A stretch of DNA of 64,000 nt from an uncultured cyanobacterium (lineage in GTDB: Bacteria; Cyanobacteriota; Cyanobacteriia; Cyanobacteriales; Nostocaceae), in the NCBI GenBank assembly GCA_903848645.1, contig CAINGU010000031.1, positions 45,919-109,918 of the forward strand, written 5' to 3'. The position numbers were made by a program, and so were the translations under genes. The notes under the pieces are model-generated. The model saw only the letters and a list, made by a program, of their open reading frames with translations. It did not search any database and was not told the origin of the DNA. How positions within the stretch are numbered: the first letter of the stretch is position 1; the number at the start of each line of letters is the position of its first letter. Shown one piece after another: positions 1 to 3,976 of the stretch.

Positions 1-643
1 ATTCAAATCCCTTAATTGTTTCGTTATTAGACTCATGGGCCTTACCCAAAACAAAGTTACCAATTTCTTGATTAATTCCAACTGGGTGAGACAAACGGAA
101 CAAGTCACGGTGTGTCCAGCCATCACGTTGGCGATACTTAATTGCTTGATATGACAAATCATTTTCAGATTTATTTGTGTACCAATCAGCAATAGCACCC
201 TTTTTAGCACGACCCCAACCACCAAGATTTTCGATATATTGTGCAAATTCAAATACATGAGTAGATGTACGAGCAATATTATCAAAAATAGAACGAGTTG
301 CAGCCTTATTCTTACCTTCTGTAAACAAAAGAGCAAGAGCAAATAATGCAGGGCTATTCTTGTATGCACGACCATTTGTAGATACTTCTACAATAGTGTT
401 GCGAACTAGATCTTCATCTGCATGAATTAGATCAGTTAAAAATTTTACGCTTTCGCCTGTAATTTTCTTTTCATTGGCGTAATATGTACCACCATCAGTT
501 CCTAAAATTAAGAATCTTTCAAGACGCGACTTATCAGATACTTGAAAAACATATCCTCCAGCGTTGTTCTTAATTTCATCTGTGCGTGAACGCTCTGTTT
601 GAGCAGTTACTTTCTTATTTACATTCTTTAGTGCATTTGACAT
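1..643 (-). CDS. rsr: Ro60/Rsr-like TROVE-domain RNA-binding protein (3' end outside window)
   Basis: The gene runs off the left edge; 214 codons are visible from the ATG at 641-643. A strong Shine-Dalgarno sequence, GGAAGGAG, lies 6 nt upstream of the start. I translated it by hand. The N-terminal half matches the TROVE module of Ro60: RFLILGTDGGTYY near residue 42, then ALFALALLF, an alanine-rich helix with STHVFEFAQY, GGWGRAKKGAIADWY, and KYRQRDGWTHRDLFRLSHP near residue 180. In the Ro60 family this HEAT-repeat ring binds misfolded RNA ends through its central hole and Y RNAs on its outer face. The vWFA-like domain expected at the C-terminus would lie beyond the window. The segment just upstream holds the Y RNA-like genes described below, which is how rsr and yrl genes are arranged in bacteria. 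The family call is firm; the phage role (RNA quality control, RNase tethering or tRNA maturation) is inference. Confidence 0.88.
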   Translation of the reverse strand, partial: MSNALKNVNKKVTAQTERSRTDEIKNNAGGYVFQVSDKSRLERFLILGTDGGTYYANEKKITGESVKFLTDLIHADEDLVRNTIVEVSTNGRAYKNSPALFALALLFTEGKNKAATRSIFDNIARTSTHVFEFAQYIENLGGWGRAKKGAIADWYTNKSENDLSYQAIKYRQRDGWTHRDLFRLSHPVGINQEIGNFVLGKAHESNNETIKGFE

Positions 644-676
644 AATCGGCTCCTTCCAGAGCATAGTTGGTTGTAT

Positions 677-816
677 AAAAAAAATAACGAATGTGTTATA
701 GATTTCGGGTTTTACCTGCTTTACCATTAAGCTACATCCCTTGCGGGACAGGTGGGAATCGAACCCTCCAACTGGTCGTTATAAGCGATAACCGAAAGTC
801 TGCCGACTCGTTATTC
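677..816 (-). ncRNA. Y RNA-like RNA 1 with permuted tRNA-like module (YrlA type)
   Basis: This looks tRNA-like but cannot be an ordinary tRNA. Reading the minus strand, the ends pair: AAUAACGAG (815-807) with UUCGUUAUU (691-683), followed by eight U, a terminator-like tail. Above this, UUUCGGUU (797-790) pairs with AACC-C-GAAA (711-703), leaving a bulged C. The distal part holds a T arm with loop UUCGAUU (752-768, one mismatch in the stem), then UGUCCC-GCAA-GGGAUG, which is an acceptor-like stem closed by a GCAA tetraloop (735-750), then a D arm GCUUAAUGGUAAAGC (718-732). T arm before D arm, with a closed acceptor stem and ends leaving at the anticodon position, is the permuted layout known for bacterial YrlA RNAs. 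Its position next to the Ro60 gene supports the call. Confidence 0.72.
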
Positions 817-830
817 ATTGTTAATTTTAA

Positions 831-980
831 AAGTACAAATGTGTGGTAGAAATAGTTTGGTTGTTGTTTTTTGGCGGATGCTCTACCGACTGAGCTAACA
901 AAAGTCCCTGGGACAATTGTGTTGGATTCGAACCAACGGCACTCTGCTTGAAGGTAAACTAATTCAATCGACTCGTACTT
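831..980 (-). ncRNA. Y RNA-like RNA 2 with permuted tRNA-like module (YrlA type)
   Basis: This has the same architecture as the RNA at 677-816 but a different sequence. The ends pair: AAGUACGAG (980-972) with UUUGUACUU (839-831). The 5' strand continues with the shared UCG, so both RNAs read ACGAGUCG. A second helix UAGUUU/AAACUA follows. The distal module has a perfect T arm (GTTGG/CCAAC with loop UUCGAAU, 921-937). Next is an acceptor-like hairpin formed by GUCC/GGAC and outer ACAA/UUGU (about 897-919), closed instead of open. Last comes a canonical D arm AGCUCAGUCGGUAGAGC (880-896). A linear tRNA reading is not possible because no 5' acceptor strand precedes a D arm upstream of the T arm. 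No U-rich terminator is obvious, so its 3' end may be made by processing. Confidence 0.68.
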
Positions 981-989
981 ATTTAATTT

Positions 990-1057
990 TAATTATGAAT
1001 ATGTTGTGTAAAACGGTGATTTTCTGAAATGATAACCGTAATACTCCGACTCATATA
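990..1057 (-). ncRNA. Short Y RNA-like stem RNA 3
   Basis: This is a candidate small RNA without a tRNA-like module. It follows a consensus promoter (1062-1090) whose predicted start falls near 1055. The 5' end UAUGAG pairs with UUCAUA (994-999), and the 5' strand continues UCGGAG, the GAGUCG motif shared with RNAs 1 and 2. An inner helix ACGGU/ACCGU follows. It shares the segment GAGYCGRAGUAUUACGRUU with the RNA at 1166-1234, although the lower stems of the two RNAs differ in sequence while staying paired. That pattern points to a conserved structured RNA. Exact ends are uncertain. Confidence 0.5.
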
Positions 1058-1061
1058 TTTA

Positions 1062-1090
1062 ATTGTAGCATATGGATATGTTATTGTCAA
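1062..1090 (-). promoter_or_regulatory. Consensus sigma-70-type promoter for RNA 3
   Basis: On the minus strand the -35 TTGACA (1085-1090) and -10 TACAAT (1062-1067) are separated by 17 nt. The predicted start is near 1055, matching the 5' end proposed for the short RNA at 990-1057 and giving a read-through route into RNAs 2, 1 and the Ro60 gene. Confidence 0.6.
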
Positions 1091-1158
1091 TAGAGAGCCA
1101 GCTCACTGGCAGTTTGTCATTGATTGATAAGATAACTATCGAACATTCGGCCCATATG
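1069..1158 (-). ncRNA. Possible Y RNA-like RNA 5 (weak)
   Basis: The ends can pair perfectly over 7 bp: CAUAUGG (1158-1152) with CCAUAUG (1075-1069). The 5' strand reads GGGCCGAAUGUUCGAUAGUU, resembling the GAGCCGAAGUAUUACGAUU of the neighbouring RNA at 1166-1234. An internal hairpin GCCAG-CUCA-CUGGC is visible (about 1097-1110). Against it, the 3' part overlaps the promoter at 1062-1090. It could be a genuine member of the array or just a spacer with a promoter. Confidence 0.3.
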
Positions 1159-1165
1159 TAATTTT

Positions 1166-1234
1166 AAAGATAAGCATAAAATGTATAACGAGTTTTTCAT
1201 CCCTTTGATAATCGTAATACTTCGGCTCACCTTT
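1166..1234 (-). ncRNA. Short Y RNA-like stem RNA 4
   Basis: It begins a few bases after the 3' end of tRNA-Pro, so it may be released by tRNA 3' processing. The ends pair over 9 bp with G-U wobbles: AAAGGUGAG (1234-1226) with CUUAUCUUU (1174-1166). The 5' strand continues CCGAAGUAUUACGAUUAUCA, nearly the same as in RNA 3. An inner ACGA/UCGU pairing closes a loop. No tRNA-like module is present. I read it as a minimal Y RNA-like molecule; function is inferred from motif sharing and position. Confidence 0.48.
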
Positions 1235-1238
1235 TTTG

Positions 1239-1309
1239 TCTGAATAGAAGGAATCGAACCTTCACCCCATGCTCCCAAAGCACGAGTTCTACCATTAAAC
1301 TACATCCAG
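1239..1309 (-). tRNA. tRNA-Pro(UGG)
   Basis: Acceptor CTGGATG pairs with TATTCAG (7 bp with wobble), discriminator A. The T arm GAAGG/CCTTC with loop TTCGATT is perfect. The anticodon stem CGTGC/GCATG closes loop TTTGGGA, anticodon TGG. CCA is not encoded. Confidence 0.9.
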
Positions 1310-1343
1310 TCAATATTGCATTTTAAATAGATGCAAAAACTAT

Positions 1344-1414
1344 TGGCACCCCGTCAAGGAATTGAACCTTGCAAGACAAGTTTTGGAGGCTCGTCCGTTC
1401 CCAGAACCCAGGAT
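1344..1414 (-). tRNA. tRNA-Trp(CCA)
   Basis: The 3' side is ACGGGGT, discriminator G and an encoded CCA. The 5' acceptor ATCCTGG pairs with two wobbles and one terminal mismatch. The T arm CAAGG/CCTTG is perfect. The anticodon loop is CTCCAAA, anticodon CCA, with a C-A at the base of the loop. The D stem has only 3 bp. It starts 1 nt after the CCA of the preceding tRNA-Met, so the two must be cut apart precisely. Confidence 0.78.
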
Positions 1415-1415
1415 T

Positions 1416-1489
1416 TGGTTGGAATACTAGGAATTGAACCTAGATATACGGCGTATGAAACCGTTGTTCTGCCCTTGAACTATACTCCA
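1416..1489 (-). tRNA. tRNA-Met/CAT (elongator-like, or Ile2)
   Basis: Acceptor TGGAGTA/TATTCCA is fully paired, with discriminator A and encoded CCA. T arm CTAGG/CCTAG with loop TTCAATT. Anticodon stem ACGGT/GCCGT, loop TTCATAC, anticodon CAT. The paired first base argues against an initiator tRNA. A CAT anticodon could also be converted by lysidine to read AUA, which sequence alone cannot settle. Confidence 0.85.
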
Positions 1490-1490
1490 G

Positions 1491-1563
1491 TAGCGTGGGG
1501 TCGGATTCGAACCGACATTGTTAGGCTTATGAGACCCGTGAGTTACCAGTACTCTACCCCGCT
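1491..1563 (-). tRNA. tRNA-Met/CAT (initiator-like, bulged acceptor)
   Basis: The body resembles bacterial initiator tRNA: GCGGGG in the acceptor, D arm GAGTACTGGTAACTC, anticodon loop CTCATAA, T arm GTCGG/CCGAC. The 3' acceptor strand reads CCC-A-CGCT, so pairing with AGCGGGG needs a bulged A. CCA is not encoded. Only 1 nt separates it from the next tRNA. The bulge is either a real oddity or a sign of decay. Confidence 0.72.
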
Positions 1564-1694
1564 ATATGAAGCATTTTAAATCCGCTCCAAAGATTAGGCA
1601 ACTCTATTGAGTCCGTCCACCACTAAACTTTTAACGTATTGTTTAGAACTACGGCAGTAACTACTTGGTTACGAGTCCAAGTTTTCTCCGCGTA
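1564..1694 (-). other. Structured leader RNA ahead of the tRNA array, unassigned
   Basis: About 130 nt lie between the predicted start (near 1694) and the first tRNA, with no plausible gene. Three hairpins are visible on the minus strand: ACUUGG/CCAAGU with loop ACUCGUAA, CUAAAC/GUUUAG, and ACUC-AAUA-GAGU. The nonamer AACCAAGUA and a nearby UAGUUCU recur in the unassigned RNA at 3858-3976. It has no T arm, so it is not a normal tRNA. It could be another Y-like RNA or a processed leader. Confidence 0.4.
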
Positions 1695-1700
1695 ATATAT

Positions 1701-1740
1701 ATTATATACCATACGGGGAACTTTTGTCAAATTCCCCGTA
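1701..1740 (-). promoter_or_regulatory. Consensus promoter with palindromic operator for the RNA array
   Basis: On the minus strand -35 TTGACA (1725-1730) and -10 TATAAT (1701-1706) are both perfect, spacer 18 nt. The -35 box sits in the centre of a perfect 9-bp inverted repeat TACGGGGAA/TTCCCCGTA (1712-1740). This can serve as a repressor operator, or as the terminator hairpin of hsp20, which ends at 1804. It should drive the leader, the four tRNAs and RNA 4. Confidence 0.75.
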
Positions 1741-1803: not shown

Positions 1804-2376
1804 TTATTTGATGGTGATTTGTCTAGCTTGTTCTTCTTCTGGAAGGTTTCTAACTAATTTAATAGTTAAAATTCCATCCTTAAATGCAGCAGATTCAACT
1901 TCTACATATTCGGCTAAAGCGAAAGCTCTAGTAAATGATCGGGTTGCAATACCTTTATAACTATATTTCTTTTCTTTTTCTTTATCTTCTTCAATTGAAC
2001 CTTCAATTAAAAGAGCATTTTTTTCTTGTTTAATTGAAATATCTTTTTTGCTAAATCCAGCAACTGCCAATTCAACTAAAATTGTATTTTCATCTTCTGG
2101 GAAAATATTGTATGGAGGAAATGTTCCAGAATTTTTAATAATTCTTTCACCTAGCAATTCTAGATTTTCTAATTGCTTATCCCACCCAATAAAGTTTTTT
2201 GAGATATCTATTCCATTATATTGTGTGTAAACTGCGGGAATAGTATTTAATCCATTCCAAAGTACGGAACTAGTTGGTAGTGTACTTGTTAATGTAGATT
2301 GTAATGCACCACTAAATGTTGCGGAATTTGCTGATGCTGCATAATTAATTGTAATTCCATTTGTTTTTTTTGTCAT
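1804..2376 (-). CDS. Small heat-shock protein, Hsp20/alpha-crystallin family
   Basis: This 190-residue protein has an alpha-crystallin domain at roughly residues 85-180: VELAVAGFSKKDISI, the long loop with KEKEKKYSYKGIA, then AAFKDGILTIKL, the signature end of the fold. A C-terminal ITIK resembles the I-x-I/V tail motif used in oligomer assembly. Such proteins hold unfolding proteins in soluble form; phage copies may protect virion or replication proteins late in infection. I start it at the ATG at 2374-2376, preceded by GAAAGGGG, rather than an in-frame codon 16 residues earlier with no ribosome site. The leader carries two hairpins, one covering the ribosome site (see 2377-2400). A promoter lies at 2434-2461. 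Confidence 0.9.
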   Translation of the reverse strand: MTKKTNGITINYAASANSATFSGALQSTLTSTLPTSSVLWNGLNTIPAVYTQYNGIDISKNFIGWDKQLENLELLGERIIKNSGTFPPYNIFPEDENTILVELAVAGFSKKDISIKQEKNALLIEGSIEEDKEKEKKYSYKGIATRSFTRAFALAEYVEVESAAFKDGILTIKLVRNLPEEEQARQITIK

Positions 2377-2400
2377 TTTAACCCCTTTCAGCGAGTTATA
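2377..2400 (-). promoter_or_regulatory. Hairpin covering the hsp20 ribosome-binding site (possible RNA thermometer)
   Basis: In the leader, UAACUC can pair with GGGUUA over six contiguous bp (one U-G), loop GCUGAAAG. This includes GGG of the Shine-Dalgarno sequence GAAAGGGG and reaches within 3 nt of the start codon. A further U-A pair lies beyond one mismatch. A short AU-rich hairpin of this strength over the ribosome site of a small heat-shock gene is the layout of known thermometers (FourU, ROSE, cyanobacterial hsp17). Thermal behaviour here is inference. Confidence 0.38.
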
Positions 2401-2404
2401 TTTT

Positions 2405-2431
2405 ATATAGATTCCCGAAGGCAATCTATAT
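2405..2431 (-). other. 5' leader hairpin of hsp20 transcript
   Basis: ATATAGATT (2405-2413) pairs with AATCTATAT (2423-2431) over 9 bp, with a CC/GG inner stem. It lies at the predicted 5' end of the transcript and may protect the message. Confidence 0.45.
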
Positions 2432-3852: not shown

Positions 3853-3857
3853 GTGAA

Positions 3858-3976
3858 GACCATATACGAATTCCAGCACATTGAATGGCTGCCCTAAGAG
3901 TCTCCCGCAGAACTAGTCTCACGGGTTACTTGGTTATTCGTAACTATATCCATACTAAGGTGTGTCGTATATAGTC
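3858..3976 (-). ncRNA. Structured RNA between tRNAs, unassigned
   Basis: The ends of this 119-nt segment pair over 12 bp with one U-G: GACUAUAUACGA (3976-3965) with UCGUAUAUGGUC (3869-3858). Inside are hairpins GUUAC/GUAAC around GAAUAACCAA, CCCG/CGGG and CAGC/GCUG. There is no open frame and no T arm. The closing ACGA/UCGU resembles the lower stem of Y RNA-like RNAs 1 and 2, and AACCAAGUA and UAGUUCU recur in the leader at 1564-1694. It may be a further small RNA of the same system. Confidence 0.5.

What the first reader, a model, noticed from the sequence alone, without database searches (positions are those of the whole stretch)
1..1740. Phage-borne Ro60/Rsr with a multi-member Y RNA array
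Directly upstream of a TROVE-domain gene lies a set of minus-strand RNAs that share a long end-pairing stem whose 5' strand ends GAGYCG, an inner CGRUUAUC-type motif, and in two cases a permuted tRNA module. Bacterial Rsr works with Y RNAs (YrlA and relatives) that gate access to its ring and tether nucleases. A phage carrying the protein plus four or five distinct Y-like RNAs, intermixed with real tRNAs, is an unusually complete system. Possible roles are inference: steering host RNA decay, maturing the phage tRNA array, or resisting RNA-cleaving defences.
Basis: partly seen in the sequence, partly recalled or inferred. Interest (0 to 1): 0.93.

Follow-up and report, generated by a model that had tools for sequence, protein, structure and literature searches.

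The report
Phage Ro60 with five Y RNAs
A bacterial virus carries the gene for the RNA-binding protein Ro60 and, in line with its tRNA genes, five different predicted partner RNAs of the Y RNA class; the set likely helps process or police RNA during infection, and most of the related viruses examined that lack Ro60 lack these RNAs too.

Summary
The minus strand at 1234-682 carries five Y-RNA genes, 7-14 nt apart, directly upstream of a complete Ro60/Rsr gene that runs off the window's left edge. Covariance models built only from other loci find them; the one with a tRNA-like module gives all five as its top five hits in 64 kb (E 1e-19 to 6e-5). The stems covary. Two RNAs carry YrlA's permuted tRNA module; three do not.

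The kind is known: phage and bacterial Ro60 with Y RNAs are published, and arrays are common in the loci I fetched, so 'unusually complete' is not supported.

Not found described in my searches: in tRNA-rich phages Y RNAs are beads in the tRNA string (48 of 97 within 15 nt of a tRNA gene; 3.7 expected, or 12 of 25 against 3.0 with a stricter control), some nearly 30 kb from ro60. They ring in 13 of 13 records with an intact ro60 and in 3 of 12 without; in those three ro60 is broken or looks recently lost. My best reading, inferred: a Ro60 particle matured with the phage tRNAs, serving tRNA/RNA quality control through a host exonuclease. The host is uncertain: the assembly is cyanobacterial, the phage looks actinobacterial.

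The parts
2..643 (-). ro60/rsr gene, first 214 codons (539 in all; the rest lies left of the window on the same contig); start ATG 643-641, ribosome-binding-like AAGGAG at 655-650
682..816 (-). Y RNA e: closing stem, inner stem, CGGUUAUC, permuted tRNA module (T-arm, capped acceptor-like hairpin, D-arm); a run of eight U at 684-677
   Evidence: R2 E 1e-19; sub-threshold Rfam YrlA 26.4 bits; module; U run read
831..980 (-). Y RNA d: closing stem, inner stem, T-arm then D-arm
   Evidence: R2 E 4.6e-10; not found by R1; sub-threshold Rfam YrlA 25.5 bits; module
994..1055 (-). Y RNA c: minimal, two stems and CGGUUAUC loop
   Evidence: R1 E 6e-9; R2 E 8e-8
1069..1158 (-). Y RNA b: handle plus a small inner hairpin, no tRNA module
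   Evidence: R1 E 3e-4; R2 E 4e-5
1166..1234 (-). Y RNA a: minimal; begins 3 nt after tRNA-Pro
   Evidence: R1 E 9e-6; R2 E 6e-5; spacing
1238..1309 (-). tRNA-Pro(UGG), 3 nt upstream of Y RNA a
1416..1489 (-). tRNA-Met(CAU)
1493..1563 (-). tRNA-Met(CAU)
1701..1730 (-). sigma-70-like promoter, 12 of 12 consensus letters (TTGACA, 18, TATAAT), upstream of the tRNA / Y RNA / ro60 unit; predicted, not shown
1062..1090 (-). second promoter-like site, 11 of 12 letters with TG before the second hexamer, just upstream of Y RNA c; predicted, not shown

Best explanation
A phage related to the Streptomyces phages of the family Stanwilliamsviridae carries a complete ro60 gene and, on the same strand just upstream, five predicted Y-RNA genes in line with tRNA genes; the RNAs are predicted to be cut from a shared precursor with those tRNAs and would load onto Ro60, which likely then steers a host 3' exonuclease to police or mature RNA, the phage's own tRNAs first. 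Shown by sequence: gene order, the five RNAs by held-out models, covariation of the stems, conserved Ro60 residues, position in the tRNA string, and joint presence and loss with ro60 in relatives. Inferred: transcription from the promoter at 1730-1701, release by tRNA-processing enzymes, loading by the constant outer stem, tethering of a nuclease by the tRNA-like module of d and e, gating by the minimal RNAs a, b and c, and tRNAs as the main target.
For: Ro60 is full length, with the vWFA motif DVSGSM; K168, R172 and H185 (P0001 numbering, first Met left off) are invariant in 11 phage proteins and align to K170, R174, H187 of the 1yvp chain (that these contact Y RNA is recalled). Covariation: A2, 28 short Y RNAs, score 0.713 against 0.286 +/- 0.022 in 500 shuffles; the inner stem, not selected for, has changes on both sides in 7 of 8 pairs. 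A5, 20 long Y RNAs, 0.687 against 0.252 +/- 0.019; the acceptor-like hairpin, not selected for, 6 of 6 pairs. All 352 R1 hits at E <= 0.5 in 174 sources lie on the Ro60 strand (100, 153, 99; the 28 training RNAs are among them). tRNA string: 48 of 97 phage Y RNAs (44 of 89 distinct sequences) lie within 15 nt of a tRNA gene, random placement in the cluster mean 3.7, maximum 11 of 300 runs; bacteria 7 of 150. With placement kept out of annotated protein and tRNA genes, in 8 annotated records: 12 of 25 observed, mean 3.0, maximum 10 of 1,000 runs. Comrade's Y RNA at 98036-98138 lies about 27 kb from ro60, yet 6 nt from tRNA-Gly. Joint fate: 13 of 13 searched records with an intact ro60 have R1 hits; of 10 terminase relatives without Ro60, 9 have none (the same Ro60 query rang in 4 of 4 other records). 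Independent: TROVE genes sit in 20 of 29 archaeal tRNA gene clusters (PMC6333295, passage).
Against: No expression, binding or processing data. In the window only Y RNA a touches a tRNA (3 nt); b to e follow one another. The tRNA linkage is confounded by shared ancestry and phage genome size, and is about fourfold, not thirteenfold, when protein genes are excluded from the control. 3 of 12 records without an intact ro60 still have Y RNAs: NoodleTree (remnant), SM23 (one stop in frame), Annadreamy (gene absent). Three Ro60 phage loci of 40 gave no R1 hit in the fetched flanks (L021, L035, L037); in L021's phage, Atu_ph07, two Y RNAs lie far away. Which nuclease is tethered is unknown; PNPase is taken from Deinococcus work. 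Y RNA c may have its own promoter. Nothing here separates tRNA quality control from general RNA decay by a direct test.
Confidence: 0.5

Rival explanations
1. General RYPER-like decay: the phage Ro60 and its tRNA-mimic Y RNAs re-aim host PNPase at structured host RNA such as rRNA, for takeover or nucleotide recycling; proximity to tRNA genes is only a convenient place to make small structured RNAs.
For: In Deinococcus Y RNA tethers Rsr to PNPase and favours structured RNA decay (passages in PMC8394870 and PMC7790460). Modules d and e have the YrlA layout.
Against: Does not explain why Y RNAs abut tRNA genes in phages (48 of 97) but rarely in bacteria (7 of 150), nor TROVE genes in archaeal tRNA clusters.
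Confidence: 0.25
2. Counter-defence decoy: the tRNA-like Y RNAs soak up host nucleases that cut tRNAs, and Ro60 stabilises them.
For: Suggested for Salmonella YrlA as a possible competitive inhibitor of an anticodon nuclease (passage in PMC7790460). Borg elements carry TROVE genes and, in another cluster, a protein likened to a tRNA-repair enzyme (passage in PMC11208441).
Against: The module has T-arm, acceptor-like hairpin and D-arm, but the Ro60 handle stands where the anticodon arm would be, so it lacks the part such nucleases cut; 3 of the 5 RNAs have no module.
Confidence: 0.12
3. Hitch-hikers: Y RNA copies multiply in the tRNA string because Ro60 protects them, with no function beyond binding.
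For: Number and position vary between related phages (1 to 7 per locus among the 29 loci); they are mostly absent where ro60 is absent.
Against: Strong covariation of the stems and the recurring split into minimal and tRNA-module types: 28 of the 29 loci keep at least one T-arm Y RNA.
Confidence: 0.08
4. Degenerate tRNAs or chance hairpins, not Y RNAs.
For: No Rfam family reaches its gathering score in the window except tRNA.
Against: Held-out models, covariation, strand bias and joint absence with ro60.
Confidence: 0.02

Closest known systems
Bacterial Y RNA YrlA (Rfam RF02553) with Rsr, as in Salmonella and Deinococcus
   Same: Long end-pairing stem, Ro60 gene next door, permuted tRNA-like module with T-arm before D-arm in d and e; the Rfam consensus shows the same order of arms.
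   Different: d and e score 25.5 and 26.4 bits against a gathering score of 69; three RNAs lack the module; the array lies in line with tRNA genes.
Phage Ro60 and Y RNAs, annotated 'Ro-like RNA binding protein' (Mycobacterium Bixzunavirus, Streptomyces Stanwilliamsviridae, Gordonia, Rhodococcus Trina)
   Same: 342 of 50,697 phage records encode a relative; of 15 such records searched whole (13 intact genes, SM23 with a stop, NoodleTree remnant) 15 have R1 hits.
   Different: The window's Ro60 is at most 62.8% identical to the named phages listed and 66% to a viral contig. No Y RNA was annotated in the named records I viewed; in Trina a 'tRNA-OTHER' overlaps one.
Archaeal tRNA gene clusters with TROVE genes (PMC6333295, passages seen)
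   Same: TROVE gene in 20 of 29 dense tRNA gene clusters.
   Different: Archaea, not this phage; the passages I saw do not mention Y RNAs.
rsr-yrlBA-rtcBA RNA repair operon
   Same: Rsr and more than one Y RNA in one unit (passages).
   Different: rtcA and rtcB were not looked for here; the neighbours identified are tRNAs, Hsp20, an endonuclease VII-like protein and terminase.

Membership tests
Ro60 / Rsr protein | TROVE domain | tested here: met
   Pfam PF05731 4e-19 on the first 213 residues, a second match 3.8e-10 further on; PHROG 850 8e-95
Ro60 / Rsr protein | full-length ring plus vWFA architecture with MIDAS | tested here: met
   By sequence only: alignment of residues 2-537 to 2nvo and 14-534 to 1yvp; D368, S370, S372, T445, D446, D469 invariant in 11 phage proteins; no structure was predicted
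Ro60 / Rsr protein | Y-RNA-contacting residues (Lys170, Arg174, His187 of the frog protein, recalled) | tested here: met
   K168, R172, H185 of P0001 align to them and are invariant
Ro60 / Rsr protein | binds Y RNA and misfolded RNA | not testable with these tools
   needs protein work
Y RNA class | 5' and 3' ends pair in a long stem next to a conserved GYCGR-type site | tested here: met
   stems of 7-11 pairs in all five; covariation in relatives
Y RNA class | gene beside a Ro60 gene | tested here: met
   38 nt from e to the ro60 start; 37 of 40 phage and 74 of 80 bacterial Ro60 loci have hits
Y RNA class | expressed and bound by Ro60 | not testable with these tools
   needs RNA-seq and pull-down
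YrlA (Rfam RF02553) | reaches Rfam gathering score | tested here: not met
   26.4 and 25.5 bits against 69; none at gathering in 64 kb
YrlA (Rfam RF02553) | tRNA-like module, T-arm before D-arm with capped acceptor-like stem | tested here: met
   in d and e only, 2 of 5; the acceptor-like hairpin pairs less well in d
RYPER machine | Y RNA tethers Rsr to PNPase | not testable with these tools
   a PNPase gene exists in the assembly, but that assembly may not be the host
rsr-yrl-rtcBA RNA repair operon | RtcB ligase and RtcA cyclase genes adjacent | not tested
   not searched as families; none of the neighbours identified is one

The most novel reading that the evidence does not exclude
In tRNA-rich phages Y RNAs are regular members of the tRNA operon: they are beaded between tRNA genes at 1-12 nt, cut out by the tRNA-processing enzymes, and form with the phage Ro60 a dedicated quality-control particle for the phage tRNA array, so that ro60, Y RNAs and tRNA strings travel as one system, from phages to tRNA-array islands of bacteria and archaea.
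Probability: 0.3. Interest if true: 0.8.

Novelty: new variant of a known kind. Interest (0 to 1): 0.55.

Why it matters
Why large phages carry dozens of tRNA genes, and what bacterial Ro60 does, are both open questions. A Ro60 particle whose RNA parts are strung between phage tRNAs, and are mostly gone where ro60 is gone, ties the two together and makes them testable: the roughly 91%-identical pair Annadreamy (ro60 absent, Y RNAs kept) and Blueeyedbeauty (ro60 present) is a ready natural comparison. The two covariance models also see Y RNAs that Rfam's YrlA model scores far below its threshold.

Tried and rejected
Rfam Y RNA families: only sub-threshold YrlA hits in the window; runs on Y RNA c alone and on a stretch of L042 gave no Y-family match. 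The likeness of the CGRUUAUC loop to animal Y RNAs is recalled and could not be shown. My motif-plus-stem scanner is noisy in relatives: 213 hits on the Ro60 strand and 41 on the other in 96 viral loci (about 31 per strand in shuffles), 254 and 75 in 80 bacterial loci (46); so most counts rest on R1, while the 105 RNAs are R1 hits plus scanner hits of score 7.5 or more. A first D-arm regex missed the D-arm of RNA d and was replaced; the loose D-arm rule also fires in 468 of 1,913 control segments, T-arm alone in 183, T-arm before D-arm in 34. R2 partly matches tandem tRNAs (model positions about 22-112), which I did not count. Structure prediction was not run.

Prophage of the assembled organism: not supported. 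The assembly has photosystem II genes, 42% GC around its PNPase gene against 34% in the window and no WhiB gene but the one on the phage contig, so it is cyanobacterial while the phage carries actinobacterial marks; I therefore dropped the argument that the host lacks its own Ro60. No 16S rRNA gene was found. No overlap of contig ends by exact 20-mers from the first 400 bases against the last 20 kb.

Rows dropped: L025, L027, L030, L043 and L046 (the same phages or near copies) were not given to R1; other near copies stayed in (such as L024 and L047; 89 distinct sequences among the 97). 3 of 153 bacterial hits were not aligned, so one search counts 150. Searches used a hand-picked set of 31 and 29 loci; the two left out, L035 and L037, had no hit. 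Of 136 terminase relatives at E <= 1e-100 (60 listed), searches covered 10, picked as likely to lack Ro60.

Literature: searches, in an open-licence library only; the main bacterial Y RNA papers were not held.
Full report
What is there. The window is the last 64 kb of a 109,918-base contig of an unnamed assembly. At its left edge, on the minus strand, starts a gene of 539 codons (ATG 643-641) that runs about 980 bases beyond the window. Its product is a full-length Ro60/Rsr: Pfam TROVE 4e-19 on the part in the window, PHROG 850 'RNA-binding protein' 8e-95, Rsr 2nvo 5e-93 and the 60-kDa SS-A/Ro chain 1yvp 5e-87. K168, R172 and H185 (P0001 numbering), which align to K170, R174 and H187 of 1yvp, are invariant in 11 phage proteins, as are the MIDAS residues of DxSGSM; that the first three contact Y RNA is recalled.

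Directly upstream, on the same strand, lie five RNAs: a 1234-1166, b 1158-1069, c 1055-994, d 980-831, e 816-682. They fill 506 of 553 bases, with gaps of 7, 13, 13 and 14 nt, and close with stems of 10, 8, 7, 10 and 11 pairs. tRNA-Pro ends 3 nt before a; two tRNA-Met genes precede it; after ro60 another tRNA string follows, with 14 tRNAs called by ARAGORN. A perfect sigma-70 consensus (12 of 12) stands at 1730-1701 before the whole unit, a second site (11 of 12) just before c (six sites at 9 of 12 or better were found, 5.6 expected, so only these two stand out). e runs into eight U's. This points to one transcript of tRNAs, Y RNAs and ro60, with possible extra starts; that is prediction.

Are they Y RNAs? 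I built a covariance model, R1, from 28 short RNAs found near Ro60 in other phages; none came from the window. The closing stem was part of the selection; the inner stem was not, and 7 of its 8 pairs show changes on both sides (whole-structure covariation score 0.713, shuffles 0.286 +/- 0.022, slid versions at most 0.243). On the held-out window R1 gave c, a and b and nothing else; with filters off e rose to 12.7 bits and d was not found. A second model, R2, from 20 long RNAs that had been chosen for a T-arm before a D-arm, again without the window, shows changes on both sides in all five helices, including the acceptor-like hairpin, which was not selected for (6 of 6 pairs). R2 returned all five window RNAs as its five best hits at E 1e-19 to 6e-5, full length; the next three, at E 2e-4 and 0.1, fall on tRNA genes. 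So d and e look like circularly permuted tRNA mimics: T-arm, a capped acceptor-like hairpin, D-arm, and the Ro60 handle where an anticodon arm would be. a, b and c lack the module. Rfam's YrlA model sees d and e only at 25.5 and 26.4 bits, gathering score 69.

How common is it? 342 of 50,697 phage records encode a Ro60 relative, 197 of Mycobacterium and 115 of Streptomyces phages. R1 finds Y RNAs near Ro60 in 37 of 40 phage loci, 44 of 51 further viral loci (my count of the table) and 74 of 80 bacterial loci, where 150 of the 153 hits were aligned and counted. All 352 hits at E <= 0.5 lie on the Ro60 strand; the 28 training RNAs are among them. The sources include Chloroflexi, a planctomycete and a Bathyarchaeota bin. 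Arrays of several Y RNAs are thus ordinary in both phages and bacteria (seven in Trina's locus; four each in L145 and L178). In 29 phage loci with hits I classed 105 Y RNAs (R1 plus scanner): 30 T-arm before D-arm, 27 T-arm only, 11 D-arm only, 37 neither; 28 of 29 loci have at least one with a T-arm (control segments gave 34, 183, 468 and 1,228 of 1,913).

What looks specific to phages is the place. Of 97 phage Y RNAs, 48 lie within 15 nt of a tRNA gene, with gaps of 1-7 nt behind an upstream tRNA and 2-12 nt before a downstream one; random placement within the same clusters gives 3.7 on average and at most 11 in 300 runs. That control did not avoid protein genes. A stricter one, in 8 annotated records with placement outside annotated protein and tRNA genes, gives 12 of 25 observed against 3.0 on average and at most 10 in 1,000 runs. 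Counting distinct sequences once, 44 of 89 are near a tRNA gene. In bacteria it is 7 of 150, of which 50 lie in loci with tRNAs on the same strand. Whole-record searches show further Y RNAs far from ro60, such as Comrade 98036-98138, about 27 kb away and 6 nt before tRNA-Gly. Spacings of this size would suit release by tRNA-processing enzymes; that step is inferred. These loci are related, so the counts are not independent.

A natural experiment. Of 15 phage records with ro60 or a trace of it that I searched whole, 15 have Y RNA hits: 13 with an intact gene, SM23 with one stop in frame, and NoodleTree, which keeps only about the first hundred residues. Of ten terminase relatives without Ro60 (the query rang in 4 of 4 other records), nine have no hit. 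In Muntaha and Wakanda, which share with Comrade and Moab the order of tRNA genes from Pro to Asp, tRNA-Ile and tRNA-Ser are 3 nt apart, where Comrade has one Y RNA and Moab three, two of the latter by the scanner only. The tenth, Annadreamy, keeps Y RNAs: against L040, which by its record length is Blueeyedbeauty, it is about 91% identical on both sides of a missing stretch of about 3.9 kb that holds ro60; a loss is the simplest reading, since ro60 is widespread in the family. Fisher's test on 13 of 13 against 3 of 12 gives 1.1e-4, without correction for ancestry. The ten relatives were chosen because they were likely to lack Ro60 (60 of 136 listed).

Link to tRNA arrays in cells. Of the 80 bacterial Ro60 loci, 12 hold 8 or more tRNAs in less than 10 kb; ten of these twelve genomes were searched and have 56-77 tRNA matches in 3-13 Mb, so those loci are exceptional clusters. 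One of them, L151, appears to be held as a viral contig too (L096, same hit coordinates). For archaea a paper reports TROVE genes in 20 of 29 tRNA gene clusters (PMC6333295, passages seen). I searched for papers holding Ro60 with tRNA array (none) and TROVE with tRNA array (that paper only); the library holds open-licence papers only, and the two main papers on bacterial Y RNAs were not held. [quoted passage not shown] Chen and co-workers 2014, cited in PMC8394870, is recalled as reporting Y RNAs near Ro60 in more than 250 bacterial and phage species.

Mechanism. Reported for Deinococcus: Y RNA tethers Rsr to PNPase and favours decay of structured RNA (passages). The simplest transfer is that minimal Y RNAs occupy and gate the phage Ro60 while d and e bring in a host nuclease or tRNA enzyme through their tRNA-like face. 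The tRNA string, the joint absence and the archaeal clusters make the phage tRNAs the likeliest clients. A decoy against tRNA-cutting defences fits less well, because the module lacks an anticodon arm. I give identity about 0.97 and the full mechanism about 0.5 at most.

Host. The assembly has photosystem II genes and no WhiB but the one on the phage contig; the phage's best terminase and Ro60 matches among named phages are Streptomyces phages, and it carries a DUF7455 gene (that WhiB and this family are actinobacterial is recalled, though of 14 control genomes only Corynebacterium rang for WhiB). The contig is therefore probably a phage of an actinobacterium that came along with a cyanobacterial culture or bin.

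Noticed in passing
window 1325-1415, minus strand: A tRNA-Trp(CCA)-like stretch (by eye) with anticodon and T-arms but a 5' half that does not pair with the 3' acceptor strand; neither ARAGORN nor Rfam calls it.
   Followed up: no
window 1570-1700 and 3855-3975, minus strand: Unassigned stretches that fold well inside or beside the tRNA string; the first begins right after the perfect promoter-like site at 1730-1701.
   Followed up: no
G000 contig C31 as a whole: An actinophage-like contig (only WhiB of the assembly, 34% GC in the window) inside an assembly with photosystem II genes: likely carried along, not integrated.
   Followed up: partly
L123, L125, L126, L132, L133, L142, L148, L151, L156, L161, L175, L176: Bacterial Ro60 loci (Polyangium, Chloroflexi, Bradyrhizobium and others) with 8-27 tRNA genes in less than 10 kb: Ro60 in tRNA-array islands.
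   Followed up: partly
L146 (Bathyarchaeota bin): Ro60 with three R1 Y RNA hits in a record labelled archaeal.
   Followed up: no
L015 3176-3384 (Rhodococcus phage Trina): Feature annotated as pseudo 'tRNA-OTHER' overlaps a Y RNA; Trina has eight R1 hits in all. NiceHouse, placed in the same genus, has neither Ro60 nor R1 hits.
   Followed up: partly
L009 3995-5517; L019 3501-5051: Ro60 frames broken: two pieces in a viral contig, one stop in frame in Microbacterium phage SM23; Y RNAs present beside both.
   Followed up: partly
L021 / MF403008.1 467021-467086 and 446655-446719: Jumbo phage Atu_ph07 has no Y RNA hit beside ro60 but two far away, one next to a peptidyl-tRNA hydrolase gene.
   Followed up: partly
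window 1804-2424, minus strand: Hsp20-type small heat shock protein gene upstream of the tRNA/Y RNA unit.
   Followed up: no
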